Source of the DNA: Patulibacter minatonensis DSM 18081
GTDB taxonomy: Bacteria; Actinomycetota; Thermoleophilia; Solirubrobacterales; Solirubrobacteraceae
Assembly: GCF_000519325.1 (NCBI RefSeq)
Contig: NZ_KI912613.1
Coordinates: forward strand, 4,782,469-4,846,468
Direction: 5' to 3'
Length of the DNA: 64,000 bases
This document shows positions 39,462 to 62,832 of the stretch, piece after piece; position 1 is the stretch's first letter; every line of letters starts with the position of its first letter. The position numbers were made by a program, and so were the translations under genes. The notes beneath the pieces were generated by a model. It ran no database searches and was not told the origin of the DNA. It saw only the letters and a list, made by a program, of their open reading frames with translations.

Positions 39462-39520
39462 GGGCGGAGGCGGGGCCTTCGCCCACGCGCCCCGGCGGGC
39501 GGGGCGGCGCCGCGCGGCCG

Positions 39521-39690
39521 CTGCGGATTCCTGCCGCCCCACCGCACCGATCCGCAGCGGTCCACACGGGCGGCCCGGGCGCTGCGGATTCCTGCCGCCC
39601 CACCGCACCGATCCGCAGCGGTCCACACGAGCGGCCCGGGCGCTGCGGATTCCTGTCGCCCCACCGCACCAACCCGCAGCAGGTCCACCG
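39521..39690. repeat. 61-bp tandem repeat array, about 2.8 units
   Basis: Units begin at 39521, 39582 and 39643, each with CTGCGGATTCCTG then the core GCCCCACCGCACC. CTGCGGAT pairs with ATCCGCAG inside a unit, and ATCCGCAGCG pairs with CGCTGCGGAT across the unit boundary (10 perfect pairs, 20-nt loop). It fills most of the 297-nt gap between the malic enzyme and the epimerase gene; no gene was recognised there. Possible structured RNA, terminator or binding array. Confidence 0.85.
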
Positions 39691-40685: not shown

Positions 40686-40703
40686 GCGGGGCCGCGGCCG
40701 GCG

Positions 40704-40940
40704 TGGTCGGGTGCGGTTCGTCACGCCCCACCGAACGACGGACCATGGCCTCCGGCGGCATCCGTGGTCGGGTGCGGTACGTCACGCCCCACCGAACGAC
40801 GGACCATGGCCTCCGGCGGCATCCGTGGTCGGGTGCGGTACGTCACGCCCCACCGAACGACGGACCATCGCCTCCGGCGGCATCCGTGGTCGGGTGCGGT
40901 ACGTCACGCCCCACCGAACGACGGACCATCGCCTCCGGCG
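40704..40940. repeat. 61-bp tandem repeat array, about 3.9 units
   Basis: Units begin at 40704, 40765, 40826 and 40887 and are nearly identical (start TGGTCGGGTGCGG, core CACGCCCCACCGAACGACGG). The first copy has TTCG where the others have TACG, and the last copy has CATCG for CATGG. TGGTC and GACCA pair across the unit. Its core resembles that of the 39521 array. The array occupies most of the 325-nt gap between the epimerase gene and the convergent binding-protein gene; nothing else was recognised there. Confidence 0.9.
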
Positions 40941-47509: not shown

Positions 47510-48703
47510 TCAGCCCCGCGCGATCCGCTCCGCGGCGAGCGCGGCCAGCAGCGCCGCCCCGTCGGACAGGACCGCGTCGTCGAAGACGACCTCGGGCGCG
47601 TGGTGGTGCGCGGCGTCCTCGGGGGCGAGCTCCGGGGGCCGGGCGCCGAGGAGGAGGTAGCAGCCGGGGAGCTCCTGGAGGACGCGGGCGAAGTCCTCCG
47701 AGGCGGCCAGCGGGGCGGCGAGCTCCTCGACGCGGTCCGGGCCCGCCAGGCCCCGGGCGACGTCCAGGGCGAAGGCGGTCTCCCCCGCGTCGTTGTCGAG
47801 CACCGGGTAGCGGACGTCCCAGCCGACCTCGGCGGTGCAGCCGTGCGGGGCGGCGACGTCGGCGCAGAACGCGGGGAGGTCCGCCGCCAGGGTCGCCGCG
47901 GCCTCCGGGGAGAAGCTGCGGACGGCGGCGCGGACGGTCGCGACGTCGGGGATGACGTTCTCCGCACCACCGGCCGTGAGGCCCGTGACCGTCGCGACGA
48001 CCGGGTCGAACGCGCCGAACGTGCGGTCGACCCAGCCCGGGAACGCGGCGACCAGGGCCGCGGCGGCCGGGATCGGGTTGCGCGCCAGGTGCGGCATCGC
48101 GGCATGGCCCCCGCCCCCGTGGACGTCGACGGTGAGGACGGCGGAGGCCGCGAAGAGCGGGCCAGGGCGGGTCGCGATGGTCCCGCGGTCGCGCTTGGAC
48201 TCCACGTGCAGCGCGTAGGCGGCCGCTGGACGGCGGCCGGCGACGTCGACGAGCCCCTCGGCGAGCATGTGGCGCGCGCCGTCGTGGCCCTCCTCGCCCG
48301 GCTGGAACATCAGGACGACGGTCCCGGCGAGCTCGTCCCGGCGGTCGCAGAGCAGCCGGGTCGCGCCGACGAGGACGCTCGAATGGAGGTCGTGCCCGCA
48401 GGCGTGCATCGCGTCGCCGTCGGCGGCGAAGTCGAGGCCCGTGCGTTCGCTCAGGGGCAACGCGTCCATGTCGGCGCGCAGGAGCACGACCGGACCGTCG
48501 TCCGCGTCGGGGGCGGTCCCCCGGAGCACCGCGACGACCGACGTGAGTCCGCTCCCGCGATGGATCTCGAGCGGCAGCCCGTCGAGCGCCTCGAGGATCG
48601 CCGCCTGGGTGCGCGGCAGGTGCAGGCCGACCTCGGGGATCCGGTGCAGGCGCCGCCGCAGCGCGACGAGGTCGTCCTGCAGGGCGTCCGCGGTCGTGGC
48701 CAT
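47510..48703 (-). CDS. M20-family amidohydrolase
   Basis: The 397-residue metallopeptidase-like hydrolase has the M20D signature: MHACGHDLHSS (metal His and bridging region), MFQPGEEGHDGARHM (Glu pair), the lid domain with HGGGGHAAMPHLARNP, and the C-terminal SEDFARVL metal motif. Relatives remove acyl groups from N-acyl amino acids or hippurate-like substrates. It sits between trpG and trpD on the same strand, 45 nt from trpD, which hints at co-transcription but its substrate is unknown. The ATG at 48703 was chosen since the fold begins at LVALRRRLHRIPE. Confidence 0.88.
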   Translation of the reverse strand: MATTADALQDDLVALRRRLHRIPEVGLHLPRTQAAILEALDGLPLEIHRGSGLTSVVAVLRGTAPDADDGPVVLLRADMDALPLSERTGLDFAADGDAMHACGHDLHSSVLVGATRLLCDRRDELAGTVVLMFQPGEEGHDGARHMLAEGLVDVAGRRPAAAYALHVESKRDRGTIATRPGPLFAASAVLTVDVHGGGGHAAMPHLARNPIPAAAALVAAFPGWVDRTFGAFDPVVATVTGLTAGGAENVIPDVATVRAAVRSFSPEAAATLAADLPAFCADVAAPHGCTAEVGWDVRYPVLDNDAGETAFALDVARGLAGPDRVEELAAPLAASEDFARVLQELPGCYLLLGARPPELAPEDAAHHHAPEVVFDDAVLSDGAALLAALAAERIARG

Positions 48704-48774
48704 GGGGCGATCGTGCCAGGTCGGGGGTCGGGTGGCCGGATCGGGGCGGCTGGGCCAGAGCGGCCGGGTGACGG

Positions 48775-48869
48775 CGGCCGCGTCGCGGCGGCCGGGCCAC
48801 GGCGGCCGGGCCAGCGCGAACGGGTCAGGACGGCCGCGTCGCGGCGGCCGGGCCAGGGCGGCCGCTTCG
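48775..48869. repeat. GC-rich imperfect 56-bp repeat
   Basis: CGGCCGCGTCGCGGCGG begins at 48775 and again at 48831, each followed by CCGGGCCA and GGCGGCCG. The 876-nt gap 48704-49579 between the M20 gene and trpG holds this, then two hairpin arrays, and no recognisable gene; the last about 80 nt before trpG contains only a (GGTCGC/GGTCGG)-type stutter around 49510-49550. Confidence 0.6.
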
Positions 48870-48901
48870 GGGCGGTCGCGACATCCGGCGTCGGCGCGGA
48901 G

Positions 48902-49014
48902 CTGCACGATCCGACGACGAACTCGGCGGGCCGATCGAGTGTCGGATCCTGCAGCGCAGGCATGCACAAGACGACAGTCGATCGGCAGTCCGTGTTCGTT
49001 GGCGGATCCTGCAG
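48902..49014 (-). repeat. two-hairpin module (2 x 53 bp, 60-bp period), inverted copy of the 61489 module
   Basis: Units 48902-48954 and 48962-49014. On the plus strand the first has arms CTGCACGATCCGAC and GTCGGATCCTGCAG (13 of 14 pair). Reverse-complemented, the first unit matches 61549-61601 at 42 of 53 bases and the second matches 61489-61541 at 38 of 53 (hand counts), in the same order. See findings for the covarying stem position. Confidence 0.88.
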
Positions 49015-49144
49015 GTCGCGACCGCGACCCTGCCGGGCGCCGTCCTCTCTCAGCGCGCGAGGTCGTGCTCGAGGAGGCGCCGGCCGGATCGGGCGGGCGG
49101 GGGTCCGGGGCGGACTTTCGGCGTCCGGCGGAACCGCGGTCGCC

Positions 49145-49449
49145 GATGGTCGGATACCGACCATCGGTGACCTTCATCCTGGCCCGCCGGTCGATCACCC
49201 GGCCGTCGCGGTCACGGATGGGCGCACACCGACCATCGACGACCTCCACCCCCGGTGGCACGGGGCCCAATGGTCACCTCCGGTCGGGTACCGACCGTCC
49301 GGGACCTCTATCCACCCCGTCACCGGATTCCACGACCGCGACGGTCACCCGTGGTCGGATACCGACCATCCACGACATGCACCCTGGATCACCACTCGAT
49401 CCCCCGACCGCCACGGTCACCGGTGGCTGGATCCCGACCATCGGTGACC
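49145..49449. repeat. array of five short palindromes spaced 62-73 bp
   Basis: GATGGTCGG-ATA-CCGACCATC (49145-49165) is a perfect 9-bp stem. Related hairpins start near 49218, 49280, 49351 and 49424; the third has CGGTCGG/CCGACCG, a paired change from TGGTCGG/CCGACCA. At the last copy GGTCACCG (49415) pairs with CGGTGACC (49442). The elements lie upstream of the M20 gene and directly downstream of trpG on the minus strand. Confidence 0.8.
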
Positions 49450-49579
49450 CCGAACCGCTCCGCGCATGGGTCCGCACTGGATCAACCGGGTCGACGACGC
49501 TCGATCGAGGTCGCGGTCGGGGTCGCGGTCGGGGTCGGGGTCGGGGTCGCCCGGCCCGCGGTCGCAGCCCGCGTCGCGG

Positions 49580-53581: not shown

Positions 53582-54253
53582 CTACGCGCGGCGCTGCCGC
53601 AGGACCTCGAGGACGTCGTCCAGGGTGCGGTCGCGACCCTGGATCAGCGCGAGGAGGTGGTAGAGGACGTCGGCGGCCTCGTTGTCGACGCGGTCGTCGG
53701 TCTCCTCGCGGGCGGCGCGGAAGACCTCCTCGGCCTCCTCCTCGACCTTGCCGCCGGCGAAGGCGCGGTCGTTGAGCAGTTGCGCGGTGTAGGAACCCTC
53801 GGGCGCGTTGGCGCGGCGGTCGGCGAGCACGCGGACGAGGTCGGGCAGGACCTCGTGCGGTGCCAGCAGGGCGCCCACGCCCTCGCCCTCGGGGGCCCAG
53901 TCGTCGGCCGCGGGGCCCTCGGGCGCGCCGACGGGGTGGAAGCAGGTGCGCGCGCCGGTGTGGCAGGCGGGGCCGGCGGGCTCGACGAGCGCGAGGACGG
54001 CGTCCTGGTCGCAGTCGATCCGGAGCGCCCGGACCTTCTGGACGTTCCCGGAGGTCGCGCCCTTGTGCCAGAGCTCGTCGCGGGACCGCGACCACAGGTG
54101 CAGCTCGCCGGTCTCGCGGGTCCGCGTCAGCGCCTCGTCGTTGGCGTAGGCCAGGGTCAACACCTCGCCGGTGCTCCAGTCCTGGATCACCACCGGCACG
54201 AGGCCGGCGTCGTCGAAGCGCACGGTGGCGGTCAGGTCCGGCAGCACGGGCAC
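53582..54253 (-). CDS. hisI: fused phosphoribosyl-AMP cyclohydrolase / phosphoribosyl-ATP pyrophosphatase
   Basis: 223 residues from a GTG covering two steps of histidine synthesis. HisI part (about 1-115): VVIQDWSTGEVLTLAYAND, TGELHLWSRSRDELWHKGATSGN, RIDCDQDAVL and GPACHTGARTCF with the zinc cysteines. HisE part (about 125-223): LADRRANAPEGSYTAQLL, KVEEEAEEVFRAA and EAADVLYHLLALI. The order HisI-HisE is the common fusion (also called hisIE). No other his gene is in the window. Confidence 0.95.
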   Translation of the reverse strand: MPVLPDLTATVRFDDAGLVPVVIQDWSTGEVLTLAYANDEALTRTRETGELHLWSRSRDELWHKGATSGNVQKVRALRIDCDQDAVLALVEPAGPACHTGARTCFHPVGAPEGPAADDWAPEGEGVGALLAPHEVLPDLVRVLADRRANAPEGSYTAQLLNDRAFAGGKVEEEAEEVFRAAREETDDRVDNEAADVLYHLLALIQGRDRTLDDVLEVLRQRRA

Positions 54254-54294: not shown

Positions 54295-54520
54295 GTGGGT
54301 CGGCGGTCCGGTGGCAGAGCGGTCGGGTGCTCGGGCGGCCCGGTGGCAGAGCGGTCCGGTGTCGGGTGGCCGGGCGATCGGGTGGCCGGTGCCGGTACTC
54401 GGGCGGTCGGGTGGCCGGACGGCCAGGTACTCGGGCGGCCCGGTACTCGGAGGCCAGGTGGCCGGGCGGCGGGGCCGTTCCGGTGCCCGAGCGGCCCGGT
54501 GGCCGAGCGGCTCGGCCGTG
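54295..54520. repeat. degenerate GC-rich repeat tract
   Basis: The first part of the 734-nt gap 54254-54987 is a patchwork of GGGTGGCCGGGC, GTACTCGGGCGG and GTGGCAGAGCGG motifs repeated several times each. It has no convincing gene on either strand. The rest of the gap is covered by the arrays at 54565 and 54792. Confidence 0.55.
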
Positions 54521-54564: not shown

Positions 54565-54740
54565 GCAGGAACGAACGCCGGCTCCCGCCGGGCGGCGCGG
54601 CCGGCGTTCGAACCTGCGCCCCCGGCGCAGGAACGCACGCCGGCATCGCGGAACGAGACGGCCGGCGTTCGAACCTGCGCCCCCAGCGCAGGAATGCACG
54701 CCGGCACCGTGTGACGTCCGGCCCCGGCGCGCATTCCTGC
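54565..54740. repeat. hairpin array, three units of 52-53 nt at 61-62-bp spacing
   Basis: Units start at 54565, 54627 and 54688. Each begins GCAGGAA and ends CCTGC. Unit 1 arms GCAGGAACGAACGCCGGC and GCCGGCGTTCGAACCTGC pair at 16 of 18 positions. Unit 3 has changed both arms (GCAGGAATGC with GCATTCCTGC) and still pairs. The array lies between hisI (minus) and the large secreted protein (plus), that is, in a divergent promoter region. Confidence 0.85.
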
Positions 54741-54987: not shown

Positions 54988-57123
54988 ATGAAGGCCGCGC
55001 CGAAGCACCGGCGGCGAATCGCCGCCGCGGCGCTCGCCGCGCTCCTGGCCGCTCTGCTGGCGTTCGTCGCCTTCGGGAGCGGCGACGGCGGATCGACCCC
55101 GACGGGCACGACCCGGGTCGCCGATCCGACGACCGAGGACTCCGTCGACAACGGCAGCGACGCCGACGAGGTGCCCACGGATCCGAAGTTCGACCAGGCC
55201 GGCAAGAAGGCCGAGCGCGAACTGTCGGTGTCGGACGACGACGACGCCTGGGCGGTCCCGGACGCCGTCTCGATGCCGCTGAACCGGCTGTGGAACGAGA
55301 AGAAGGGCGTGTACGTCTCCCCGGGCGGCAGGGTCAGCACCCGACTGAACGCCGAGCTCCTGCGCCTGCACGCGGCGGCGGCCGTCGCCGGGCACAAGGG
55401 CTCCGCGCGGCACGACAACCGGGTGCGCCGGATCGTCGCCTACCTGACCGGCCCCGCGTACATCGACAGCAGCGAGGGCGAGAAGTTCGGCAGCTCCCGC
55501 CACAACTCGATCCACGTGCCGGGGTGGCGCCAGTCGTCCTCGGAGGTCGTCAACCAGCACCCGAGCATCGACGCCACCGTCGCCCGCGGCCTGCGGATGG
55601 CGTGGCTGGCGCGCGCGAACGTGAAGCTCTCGGGCAAGGCCCGCGACGCGATCCGCAAGGACGTCGTGGCCGTCGCCTCCTCGAAGGCGTTCCGCAACCC
55701 GGAGCGCCTGCTGAACCAGATCAACTGGAACGCCGACCTCTACGCGGCCGCCGCGACCGTCTCCAACGACGACACCCTGCTGAAGAACGACTACCGCGCG
55801 CAGCTGCAGTGGTTCGTCGACCACGCGCACGAGCCGACGGTCGAGGGCGGCCGGCCGAACCTCAGCAGCGGCAACGGGTTCTTCTACCAGCCCGAGGCCG
55901 ACTCGCAGACGGTGCTCAACCGCAGCGACACCGTCGAGTACGCGAGCATCGTCATGGGCGCCCTGCGCTACTACGACGAGGCCGTCAGGGCGGGCATGAA
56001 GCCGCTCTCCGACGACGACCAGAAGACGCTGACGGCCTGGGTCTCCCACACGCTCGAGGCCGACTGGACGGCGTCGGGCTACCTGAACTGGGAGACCGGG
56101 AAGGCCGGCTCCCGCCTGCACCTGCGCCAGTACTGGGCGCTCGCGCTCGACGGCGTCGCCAACGGCCTGCTCGGCAGCGCCGGGATGACGAAGCGCGACC
56201 CGACGGAGGGCGACCGCGTCGTCAGCCGCGGCGAGGAGCTCTTCCGCCGCTGGTCCTCCGGCGCCGGGACCGTCCTCCTGCCGGCGACGTCGTTCAACTA
56301 CCCGTCGCGCTTCGTCGGGGTGCGGAACAACCGCACGACCGCGAGCGTCCGGCTCGGCGCGACGATCGCCGAGTGGGCGGCGGACTGCCGGTGCCGCGGA
56401 CGCCTCGCCGCCCCCGCGTCCGCCAAGGCGCCGGTCCTGACCCGCTTCGACCCCGAGTTCAAGCGCCTCACCGTCAACGGCCCGCGCTACTCGACCGCGC
56501 TGTCCCCGACCGCGATCCCGACCGGCGGCGGCCTCGAGCCCGCCTGGCTCCTGGACGCGAACGCCGACAGCCTGATCGCCCTGGGCGGCGGCGGACAGGG
56601 CTCGCTCGGCCTGCGCCTGGTCGGCGACGGCAAGGTCCTGCTCGACACGCAGCCCGGCCCGACCCAGGTCGGCGCGCTCGCCCTGCGCCAGGCGAAGAAG
56701 GACCCGAACGCCTACACCGGCCGCGCCGCCCTGGGCGACACCGTCGTCCGCGTCACGCACCGCTTCCTGCCCGACCGGATCATCACGACCTACCTCGTGG
56801 ACCCGCGCCGCGACGTCGAGGTCCAGCTCCGCCTGCCGTCCGCCGGCCGGAGCGGCACCGTGCGCTGCGGTCCGGGCGTCCTCGGCCTGCCGAAGCGCGG
56901 CCGGCTCCCCGGCTGCGGCCGCGGTCAGGACTACGTCGTCCGCTCCGCCGGCGGCGCCTCGATGCACGTGGGCCTCCTCGGCCTCACGCCCGGCGGGATC
57001 ATCACCCGCAGCCGCCCCGGCGTCCGCTCGACCCTCCCCCGCCCGGGCAGCCAGGCGACCATCCGCATCCGCGTGAACAGCCGGACCCAGATCACCCGCG
57101 TGATCCGGCCGGACGCGGACTAG
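54988..57123 (+). CDS. large secreted or membrane-anchored protein of unknown function
   Basis: 711 residues. A basic N-terminus and one hydrophobic segment (about 10-30) act as signal or anchor, followed by a Gly/Thr/Asp-rich linker. The central part (about 95-420) is helical with repeated Trp/Tyr/Asn-rich turns such as NRLWNEKKGVYVSPGG, LNQINWNADLY, NLSSGNGFFYQPE and HLRQYWALALDG, which suggests an alpha/alpha-toroid like polysaccharide lyases; this is a fold guess only. The C-terminal part (about 480-700) is beta-rich and ends with IRIRVNSRTQITRVIRP. No catalytic motif is certain. The ATG at 54988 gives the cleanest signal. Confidence 0.7.
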   Translation: MKAAPKHRRRIAAAALAALLAALLAFVAFGSGDGGSTPTGTTRVADPTTEDSVDNGSDADEVPTDPKFDQAGKKAERELSVSDDDDAWAVPDAVSMPLNRLWNEKKGVYVSPGGRVSTRLNAELLRLHAAAAVAGHKGSARHDNRVRRIVAYLTGPAYIDSSEGEKFGSSRHNSIHVPGWRQSSSEVVNQHPSIDATVARGLRMAWLARANVKLSGKARDAIRKDVVAVASSKAFRNPERLLNQINWNADLYAAAATVSNDDTLLKNDYRAQLQWFVDHAHEPTVEGGRPNLSSGNGFFYQPEADSQTVLNRSDTVEYASIVMGALRYYDEAVRAGMKPLSDDDQKTLTAWVSHTLEADWTASGYLNWETGKAGSRLHLRQYWALALDGVANGLLGSAGMTKRDPTEGDRVVSRGEELFRRWSSGAGTVLLPATSFNYPSRFVGVRNNRTTASVRLGATIAEWAADCRCRGRLAAPASAKAPVLTRFDPEFKRLTVNGPRYSTALSPTAIPTGGGLEPAWLLDANADSLIALGGGGQGSLGLRLVGDGKVLLDTQPGPTQVGALALRQAKKDPNAYTGRAALGDTVVRVTHRFLPDRIITTYLVDPRRDVEVQLRLPSAGRSGTVRCGPGVLGLPKRGRLPGCGRGQDYVVRSAGGASMHVGLLGLTPGGIITRSRPGVRSTLPRPGSQATIRIRVNSRTQITRVIRPDAD

Positions 57124-60454: not shown

Positions 60455-61345
60455 ATGAGCAGCGAGCACGTCCTGAGCACCCTCGTCGACGACGGGCACT
60501 ACTTCGAGTGTCCGCGGTGGCACGACGGGCGGTGGTGGGTCTCGGACTTCTACTCGCACGCCGTCCTCGCGATCGACCCCGACGGCACGACCGAGAGGGT
60601 GCTGCGGGTCGACGCCCAGCCGTCCGGCCTCGGGTGGCTGCCCGACGGCGACCTGCTGGTCGTCTCGATGAAGGACCGGAAGCTCCTCCGCCGCGGTGCC
60701 GACGGGGCCGTGGCGATCCACGCCGACCTCGACGGGCTCGCGAGCGGCCACCCCAACGACATGCTGGTCCGCGACGGCCACGCCTACGTCGGGAACTTCG
60801 GCTTCGACCTGATGGGCGGTGCCGACCCGACGACCGCGGACCTCGTGCACGTCGCCCCGGACGGCACCGCGAGCGTCGCCGCCTCGGACCTGTGGTTCCC
60901 GAACGGCATGGTGCTCGCCGACGACACGACGCTCGTGGTCGCCGAGACCTTCGCCGCGCGCCTCACAGCCTTCACCATCGCGCCCGACGGGACGCTGCAC
61001 GACCGGCGCGTGTGGGCCCAGGTGCAGCCCGCCCCGGAGCCGGCGGACCTCGCGACGATGCTCGCGTCGTTCGCGTTCGCCCCCGACGGGTGCGCCGTCG
61101 ACGCCGAGGGCCACGTCTGGGCGGCCAACGCGCTCGGCGGCGTCCTGAACCGCATCGCCCCGGGCGGCCGGATCGTCGACGAGGTCGCGATGCCCGAGGG
61201 CCTCGGCGTGTTCGCCTGCGGCCTCGGGGGCGACGACGGCCGGACGCTGCTGGCCTGCGCGGCCCCCGACTTCCACGAGGCGGCGCGCGTCGCGGTCCGG
61301 GAGGCCGTGCTCCTGACGACGACCGTGGACGTACCGGCGGGGTGA
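60455..61345 (+). CDS. SMP-30/gluconolactonase-like beta-propeller protein
   Basis: 296 residues of repeated beta-propeller blades: DDGHYFECPRWHDGRWWVSDF, SGLGWLPDGDLLVVSM, NDMLVRDGHAYVGNFGFDL and FPNGMVLADDTTLVVAE, the last two with the Asn/Asp residues that bind the metal in lactonases. Likely hydrolyses a sugar lactone or similar ester; substrate unknown. GAAGGAG lies 5 nt ahead of the ATG. It is the only plus-strand gene within the dnaJ-prmA-phoH block. Confidence 0.85.
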   Translation: MSSEHVLSTLVDDGHYFECPRWHDGRWWVSDFYSHAVLAIDPDGTTERVLRVDAQPSGLGWLPDGDLLVVSMKDRKLLRRGADGAVAIHADLDGLASGHPNDMLVRDGHAYVGNFGFDLMGGADPTTADLVHVAPDGTASVAASDLWFPNGMVLADDTTLVVAETFAARLTAFTIAPDGTLHDRRVWAQVQPAPEPADLATMLASFAFAPDGCAVDAEGHVWAANALGGVLNRIAPGGRIVDEVAMPEGLGVFACGLGGDDGRTLLACAAPDFHEAARVAVREAVLLTTTVDVPAG

Positions 61346-61488
61346 GGCCGGGGCCGCGGGGACGGCCGGCCGGCGGGACGAGGGCGGGGCTGAAATGACT
61401 GGCGTCGGGAACGGGTGGGCGGGCCGGCGGAACACGGCCGAGATCCGGTCGACCCGGAGCTGCGGCACCGAGCACGGGTCCGATCGCC

Positions 61489-61601
61489 CTGCATGATCCG
61501 ACAACGAGATCGCGACCGCGATCGACTGTCGGGGCGTGCATCCCTGAGCTGCACGACCCGACACTCGATCGGTGGCCCGCACTCGTTGTCGGGTCGTGCA
61601 G
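61489..61601 (+). repeat. two-hairpin module (2 x 53 bp, 60-bp period)
   Basis: Unit 2 (61549-61601) has perfect 15-bp arms CTGCACGACCCGACA / TGTCGGGTCGTGCAG around a 23-nt loop. Unit 1 (61489-61541) is an imperfect hairpin with an inner perfect GATCGCG-AC-CGCGATC. The whole 113 bp reappears inverted at 48902-49014. It lies in the 485-nt gap 61346-61830 between the convergent SMP-30 and prmA genes; no gene was seen in that gap. Confidence 0.9.
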
Positions 61602-61662
61602 CTCGCTCAGCGACACGGGGTCCTCGAGGGTCGCGGAGCCGGCGCGGACCGACCTGCGCGGA

Positions 61663-61777
61663 GGCGGGAAACCCGACAGCGAAGCGCGACGGTCCGTCGA
61701 CCGTCGCGTCTCCCGCTCCTCCGGCGGGACTCCCGACAGTGAGATGCGGCGAGTCGTCGACTGTCGTCTTCCCCGCC
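61663..61777. repeat. two hairpin units at 60-bp spacing, second type
   Basis: Units start at 61663 and 61723 with GGCGGGA and carry CCCGACAG. Unit 1 contains CGCGACGGTC-CGTC-GACCGTCGCG (61685-61708, 10 perfect pairs). In unit 2 CGACAGT pairs with ACTGTCG and GGCGGG with CCCGCC. It lies 50 nt before the 3' end of prmA. Confidence 0.8.
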
Positions 61778-61830
61778 GTCCGTACCGCCCGCCCGGCGTC
61801 CGCCGGGGCGCGCCGGCCCGCCGGGCTCCG

Positions 61831-62832
61831 TCAGCCGCGCCGCAGCAGCAGCGCGGCCCAGTCGCCCTGGGTCCGGCGTTCGGCCTCGACCAGGCCGGTC
61901 CGGGCGAAGGCGGCGGCGACGCCGTCGAGCTCGTGGACCAGGAGGCCTGACGCGATCAGGTGGTGCGGGGGCTCGCCCTGGAAGCCGTCGGCTGCGACGC
62001 GGAGGAGGAGCGGGCGGAGGAGGTTCGCGAGGACCAGCGGTGCGGAGTCGGTCCCGACGGCTCCGTCGGCGGGCGCGGCGTGGTCGGCGCCCGCTCCCGG
62101 ACCGGCGGCGTGGCCGCCCGGCCCGTGGGCCCCGGGCATCGCCGTCGCGCCGTCGCGGAGCAGATCGAAGCGGTCGGCCGTCATCGGCTCGCCGTTGACG
62201 CGGGCGTTCTCCAGCGTGGCCTCGACGGAGGCGACCTCGTGGTCGACGCCGTGGACCGGGCCCCAGCCCAGACGGGAGGCCGCGATGCCGAGGACTCCCG
62301 ACCCGCAGCCGAGGTCGAGGACCGGGCCCAGCGGCTCGCCGGACGCGACGCGGGCGTCCGTCAGCTCGACGAGGAACTCCAGGCACAGCCGGGTCGTGGC
62401 GTGCGCGCCCGTGCCGAACGCCTGGCCGGGGTCGACGATCAGGTCGGAGGCCGCGGCCGCCGCCCCACCCGACGCCCCGCGTCCTCCGGGACCGGTCGGC
62501 GTGGAGTCGGCGCCCGCTCCCCCACCCTCGTACGCCGGCGACCACGGCGGGCGGACGTAGAGGCGGTCCTTGATCAGGATCGGCTCGTGGAAGGCGCGCC
62601 AGCGGTCGGCCCAGTCGTCGGCGACCTCGGTGGAGACGACCTCGACCAGGGCGTCGCCGACCACGGCACGGACCGCGGGGAGCGCCGGGAGCTCGCCCTC
62701 GGCGCCGTAGACCGCGTACTCGATCGTGTCGCCGAGGTCGGTCTCCTCGACGCCGCCCGGCGCGAGGTCCATGAGCTCGGCGAGGACGACCTCGGCGTCG
62801 GCCGGGCGGACCCGGAAGGCCAGGCGGATCAC
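61831..62832 (-). CDS. prmA: ribosomal protein L11 methyltransferase
   Basis: 333 residues. PrmA uses SAM to trimethylate L11. N-terminal substrate domain with DWADRWRAFHEPILIKDRLYV, then DPGQAFGTGAHATTRLCLE, SAM motif I LDLGCGSGVLGIAA and the post-motif LVLANLLRPLL. Two low-complexity Gly/Ala/His-rich insertions (about residues 104-125 and 235-260) make it longer than usual. It follows dnaJ after 172 nt, the usual neighbourhood. Confidence 0.93.
   Translation of the reverse strand: MIRLAFRVRPADAEVVLAELMDLAPGGVEETDLGDTIEYAVYGAEGELPALPAVRAVVGDALVEVVSTEVADDWADRWRAFHEPILIKDRLYVRPPWSPAYEGGGAGADSTPTGPGGRGASGGAAAAASDLIVDPGQAFGTGAHATTRLCLEFLVELTDARVASGEPLGPVLDLGCGSGVLGIAASRLGWGPVHGVDHEVASVEATLENARVNGEPMTADRFDLLRDGATAMPGAHGPGGHAAGPGAGADHAAPADGAVGTDSAPLVLANLLRPLLLRVAADGFQGEPPHHLIASGLLVHELDGVAAAFARTGLVEAERRTQGDWAALLLRRG

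What the first reader, a model, noticed from the sequence alone, without database searches (positions are those of the whole stretch)
48902..49014. A 113-bp two-hairpin module is present twice, inverted, with stem covariation
Seen directly: two unlike 53-bp hairpins in fixed order at 61489-61601 are repeated in reverse complement at 48902-49014 (about 79% and 72% identity by hand count). In the better pair, stem position 9/45 changes from T-A to C-G on both sides, and the outer arms CTGCA/TGCAG are kept. Conserved order, spacing (60 bp) and pairing argue for selection on an RNA or DNA structure, or for movement of the module as one unit. No known element was recognised.
Basis: seen in the sequence. 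Interest (0 to 1): 0.75.

Follow-up and report, generated by a model that had tools for sequence, protein, structure and literature searches.

The report
Dispersed intergenic hairpin repeat of Patulibacter
The 113-base module is a genuine repeat: one short palindrome present as back-to-back pairs at about ten places between genes in this bacterium (Patulibacter), resembling the REPIN and ERIC repeats of other bacteria but without the REPIN signature motif or helper enzyme, and it matters mainly because this genome holds many intergenic repeats locked to a 60-61 base unit length.

Summary
Coordinates and identities (42/53, 38/53) are exact, and the module is far beyond chance: the genome holds six full 113-bp copies at scattered intergenic sites (E 1e-53 to 2e-9). 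The interpretation needs correcting. The two "unlike" hairpins are one 53-bp quasi-palindrome in opposite orientation, 7 nt apart, so the module is itself an inverted repeat (78% self-complementary) that folds best as one long hairpin. Four further pairs share the core; most have the outer arms CTGCA/TGCAG swapped for CGGGA/TCCCG, one of them in the window at 61664-61776. Two sister Patulibacter genomes carry 54-bp versions in direct arrays with the same 7-nt spacer. Loops are saturated while stems are 93-98% identical, so the stems are constrained. Best reading: a REPIN/ERIC-like non-autonomous palindromic element, seen only in this genus, with no Y1/RAYT transposase found and no GTAG tag. 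Unexpectedly, other intergenic repeats of this genome, in nine sequence clusters, share an exact 61-bp period.

The parts
48902..49014 (.). 113-bp inverted dimer, copy 1 (CTGCA/TGCAG arms), between trpG and an M20 peptidase gene
   Evidence: Own-genome BLAST, E 4e-18; inverted-repeat search; fold z -8.0
48902..48954 (+). 53-bp unit, left half of copy 1
   Evidence: Model R2, 58.8 bits, E 4.5e-12
48955..48961 (.). 7-nt spacer of copy 1 (tip of the long hairpin)
   Evidence: Sequence; same length in all copies
48962..49014 (-). 53-bp unit, right half of copy 1; weak as a separate hairpin
   Evidence: Model R2, 53.9 bits; folds
61489..61601 (.). 113-bp inverted dimer, copy 2 (CTGCA/TGCAG arms), between an SMP-30-like gene and prmA (convergent)
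   Evidence: fold z -9.4
61489..61541 (+). 53-bp unit, left half of copy 2
   Evidence: Model R2, 52.9 bits
61542..61548 (.). 7-nt spacer of copy 2
   Evidence: Sequence
61549..61601 (-). 53-bp unit, right half of copy 2; 15-bp perfect outer stem
   Evidence: Model R2, 61.9 bits
61664..61776 (+). Related pair with GCGGGA/TCCCGC-type arms, two units in direct orientation, 60-bp spacing, 55 bp from the prmA stop
   Evidence: Model R2, 52.7 and 43.8 bits; core pattern. These units were in the training set of R2.
61664..61716 (+). 53-bp unit, first of the direct pair
61724..61776 (+). 53-bp unit, second of the direct pair

Best explanation
A low-copy, dispersed intergenic palindromic element that works like a REPIN or ERIC repeat. 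Its block is a 53-bp quasi-palindrome: outer arm CTGCA (or CGGGA), a loose 4-nt gap, core CCGACA/TGTCGG, TCGATC and TTCGT motifs, and a free loop. Two blocks head to head, 7 nt apart, make a 113-bp element that can form one long hairpin: about 20 bp outer stem, unconstrained internal loop, about 20 bp inner stem, 7-nt tip. I infer that this hairpin, in single-stranded or cruciform DNA, is what an unidentified enzyme recognises, that copies spread to new intergenic sites as dimers, and that tandem copies arise by recombination or slippage. SHOWN: discrete dispersed copies with no similarity beyond the arms; constrained stems beside saturated loops; pairing across the dimer axis; arm swaps that keep pairing; restriction to the genus in the genomes searched. 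INFERRED: mobility, action at the DNA level, the enzyme acting in trans.
For: Six full copies with sharp ends and four related pairs, all intergenic; flanks unrelated up to the arms. Loops 36% identical (34% expected at random) while arms, core and TCGATC are 93-98% identical. Long hairpin preferred by 13.7-41.4 kcal/mol over two hairpins; z -6.9 to -12.7. Inner gap pairs across the dimer in 14/24 cells, p 0.004; whole-element covariation 9 pairs against 5.7, 9/500. Compensated arm and core changes between subfamilies, 0/500 shuffles. G-T and A-C mismatches equally common, so no sign of selection on one RNA strand. The dimer is absent from the trpG-trpD junction of five sister genomes. Inverted doublets, conserved ends, variable middle and tandem clusters match the REPIN description (PMC3116915).
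Against: No movement was seen: no clean empty site (loci without the element also differ in gene content), no consistent target duplication (read). No Y1/RAYT transposase domain in the genus, and other transposase types were not searched. Only about ten pairs, 70-79% identical, so any spread is old. G007 has a hairpin pair at the same prmA-phoH junction, which also fits vertical inheritance of a functional site.
Confidence: 0.55

Rival explanations
1. A structured RNA element: a hairpin in mRNA 3' regions that stops transcription in both directions or protects the message from 3' exonucleases.
For: Four of nine intergenic sites (five of ten pairs) lie between convergent genes; very stable RNA folds; an element downstream of prmA in two species.
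Against: Two sites lie between divergent genes (one by my reading of an uncalled MFS gene start). No T-run terminator. No excess of G-T over A-C mismatches. No Rfam match. Flanking genes share no function.
Confidence: 0.2
2. A palindromic DNA site for a regulator, nucleoid protein or topoisomerase, kept in place by selection and not spread as an element.
For: Near-invariant, partly palindromic motifs (TGCA, CCGACA, TCGATC) beside saturated spacers; positional similarity at prmA-phoH in G007.
Against: Unrelated flanking genes; whole arms swap between CTGCA and CGGGA in one genome, odd for a fixed binding site; absent or undetected in several sister genomes.
Confidence: 0.15
3. A decayed minisatellite: units made by replication slippage in G+C-rich intergenic DNA, with no function and no recognition.
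For: Direct arrays of the same unit in G002 and G007; many other intergenic arrays of 61-bp period here.
Against: Saturated loops beside near-invariant stems; nine of ten pairs in this genome are inverted, which slippage does not produce; dispersal over the whole chromosome.
Confidence: 0.07
4. Chance similarity of G+C-rich sequence.
For: None beyond high G+C content.
Against: E-values down to 2e-9 or better for all six copies; 5 pattern matches against 0.04 expected.
Confidence: 0.01

Closest known systems
REPIN (inverted REP doublets; PMC3116915, PMC3733652)
   Same: Intergenic; inverted pair of quasi-palindromes; conserved ends and variable middle; folds into one long hairpin; occasional tandem clusters; several sequence classes in one genome.
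   Different: Unit 53 bp instead of 20-40 bp; spacer fixed at 7 nt; no GTAG tag seen; no RAYT found in the genus; about ten pairs, not hundreds.
ERIC / intergenic repeat unit of enterobacteria (from my own knowledge: about 127-bp imperfect palindrome)
   Same: Single imperfect palindrome of similar length, intergenic, low to moderate copy number, no transposase of its own.
   Different: Found here only in Patulibacter; modular dimer of one unit with exchangeable arms; sequences not compared here.
MIRU-VNTR of mycobacteria (46-101 bp tandem units at 41 loci; PMC3914561)
   Same: Short tandem units scattered over an actinobacterial chromosome; like the direct arrays in G002, G007 and the 61-bp arrays here.
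   Different: The window copies are mostly inverted pairs with strongly constrained stems; no shared origin was tested.

Membership tests
REPIN / REP | Inverted pair of quasi-palindromic units in extragenic space that folds into one hairpin | tested here: met
   nine of ten pairs inverted
REPIN / REP | GTAG (or CGTC) tetranucleotide tag at one end of the unit | tested here: not met
   Unit ends are CTGCA/TGCAG, CGGGA/TCCCG or GTGC/GCAC, read from alignment A4
REPIN / REP | Cognate Y1 (RAYT) transposase gene in the genome | tested here: not met
   PF01797: 0 of 8 genus genomes, while 5 of 14 control genomes ring; genomes are 75-96% complete
REPIN / REP | Evidence of movement (empty sites or excision) | tested here: inconclusive
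   Presence varies between species but flanking gene content differs too
ERIC / IRU | Sequence of the ERIC consensus | not tested
   No ERIC consensus was aligned; the likeness is of shape and size only
Known RNA families (Rfam 15) | Score above a family's gathering threshold | tested here: not met
   No match in the window
Intrinsic terminator | G+C-rich hairpin followed by a T run | tested here: not met
   None at 61300-61900; other copies not scanned
Integron attC site | R'/R'' boxes and an integron integrase | not tested
   Considered because of hairpin shape and nearby gained genes; no integrase search was run

The most novel reading that the evidence does not exclude
Patulibacter carries a class of intergenic hairpin satellites whose module length (53-54 nt hairpin plus 7 nt, 60-61 bp) is held fixed while the sequence is replaced wholesale, arm by arm, with pairing kept. 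A length-measuring enzyme or DNA-packaging protein unlike RAYT would then act on hairpin geometry more than on sequence.
Probability: 0.3. Interest if true: 0.68.

Novelty: new variant of a known kind. Interest (0 to 1): 0.46.

Why it matters
REPIN-like elements are thought to depend on RAYT transposases. A family with the same anatomy in a genus where none was found would mean that another, unidentified enzyme can spread or maintain such elements, or that structure alone is enough. The sharp 61-bp lock across nine sequence clusters gives a measurable handle on that machinery, and arrays with 94-98% identical units could serve as strain markers.

Tried and rejected
Chance similarity: rejected. 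Known RNA family: none. RAYT/IS200-type mobilisation: no PF01797 in the genus. Spread beyond the genus: model R1 in 61 genomes hit only same-genus genomes apart from two weak matches (G025, G032; E 0.002-0.005) whose sequence does not show the unit. An exact-pattern scan of 84,980 species genomes gave 67 loci; two are Patulibacter, and I take the rest as random because they are spread over unrelated phyla, without checking each. The first core pattern was one base too short and gave only spurious hits; redone. The first lag statistics were spoiled by an overwritten variable and by N runs; corrected. Lag of palindrome centres gave only a modest excess at 60-61. A test whether the other 61-bp arrays contain a 53-54 nt hairpin was positive for about half and was not significant even for the known hairpin arrays, so it is not relied on. 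Insertion next to newly gained genes: suggestive at trpG-trpD, not general. Literature searches found no earlier description in Patulibacter, within an open-access library only.

Full report
WHAT WAS CHECKED. Inverted, they agree in 85 of 113 positions: 42/53 and 38/53 by hairpin, 5/7 in the spacer, so the hand counts were right. A core pattern occurs five times in the window against 0.04 expected, and four of the five are the four units.

WHAT THE MODULE IS. The two hairpins of each module are inverted copies of each other (55-59 nt arms, 76% and 78% complementary). The module is a head-to-head dimer of one 53-bp quasi-palindrome with a 7-nt spacer. BLAST against its own genome (5.52 Mb, one contig) gives six full copies at 117178, 1415890, 2730012, 3478602, 4831370 (window 48902) and 4843957 (window 61489); most match on both strands over the full length. 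A covariance model of the unit (R1) and a core pattern add four pairs: 1412652-1412764, 1509360-1509472, a degenerate pair at 1277689, and window 61664-61776. Most of these carry CGGGA/TCCCG arms instead of CTGCA/TGCAG around the same core CCGACA...TGTCGG; the first arm at 1277689 is degenerate. Nine of the ten pairs are inverted; 61664-61776 is direct.

RELATIVES. A broader model R2 (36 units) finds units in four of eight genus genomes: this one, G007 (many), G002 (a six-unit array) and, weakly, G005. In G002 and G007 the units are 54 bp with the same 7-nt spacer and run in direct arrays of 61-bp period or in pairs. Outside the genus nothing convincing was found.

STRUCTURE AND CONSTRAINT. 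The long hairpin of the whole element beats two separate hairpins by 13.7 to 41.4 kcal/mol with RNA parameters, and in all six with DNA parameters; some single units, such as 48962-49014, hardly fold alone. Whole-element covariation is modestly above shuffles (9 pairs with double changes against 5.7, 9/500), mainly at the inner 4-nt gap, which pairs across the dimer axis in 14 of 24 cells (p 0.004). Across subfamilies and species, paired replacements in the arms and at core position 13/42 (A-T to C-G) put covariation above all 500 shuffles; this reflects a handful of events inherited by many sequences. Loops are saturated (36% identity, 34% expected) while arms, core and TCGATC are 93-98% identical. 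G-T and A-C mismatches are equally common, so nothing points to selection on one RNA strand.

CONTEXT. All ten pairs are intergenic by codon-usage gene calls: four sites (five pairs) between convergent genes, three between co-directional genes and two between divergent genes, one of these by my reading of an uncalled MFS gene start. Flanking genes share no function. In five sister genomes trpG is followed by trpD, without the M20 peptidase gene or the dimer. At prmA-phoH this genome has an extra SMP-30-like gene and two pairs, G007 has one hairpin pair and no extra gene, and G004 and G001 have neither. At the thyX-gdh and kinase-sigma loci the relatives sampled lack the element but also differ in gene content. 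Presence therefore varies, but no clean empty site was found.

A WIDER PATTERN. Tandem-repeat search of 0.86 Mb of this genome found intergenic arrays with a sharp mode at exactly 61 bp. With a further 0.4 Mb and N runs excluded, 15 intergenic regions repeat at lag 61 against a mean of 0.65 at other lags (maximum 5, reached at 70 and at 122, twice 61); they form nine sequence clusters. Same-genus G001 peaks at 59-60; one outside genus, G036, has none. Three of these arrays are in the window. Whether they share the hairpin architecture is not settled.

MECHANISM AND COMPARISON. The anatomy matches REPINs: inverted doublets, conserved ends, variable middle, long hairpin, tandem clusters (PMC3116915; PMC3733652). 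Two defining features fail: the GTAG tag, and a RAYT gene, for which PF01797 was not found in any of the eight genus genomes. It works like a REPIN or ERIC but is not filed as either. Mobility, DNA-level action and the acting enzyme are inferred, not shown.

Noticed in passing
39515-39688 and 40702-40940: Two young tandem arrays of exactly 61-bp period (94% and 98% matches) on either side of one epimerase-like gene; both repeats have relatives at distant intergenic sites.
   Followed up: partly
54576-54729: A third 61-bp-period intergenic repeat, related to repeats at genome positions 14711 and 2729689.
   Followed up: partly
own genome, 15 intergenic regions in 1.26 Mb: Intergenic repeats in nine sequence clusters share an exact 61-bp period; G001 of the same genus prefers 59-60, and one other genus shows none.
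   Followed up: partly
49135-49456: Another hairpin repeat family (GATGGTCGGATACCGACCATCGG type), several copies right beside the 48902 element.
   Followed up: no
47510-48703 and 60455-61345: An M20 peptidase gene between trpG and trpD, and an SMP-30-like gene between prmA and phoH, are extra in this genome compared with sister genomes; both sit beside the hairpin elements.
   Followed up: partly
48730-48880: 14-bp G+C-rich repeat with a 56-bp higher-order period just upstream of the M20 peptidase gene.
   Followed up: no
54302-54515: Overlapping 16- and 32-bp G+C-rich tandem repeats between the genes at 53582-54247 and 54988-57123.
   Followed up: no
49505-49550: Hexamer run TCGGGG/TCGCGG between trpG and the hairpin repeats.
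   Followed up: no
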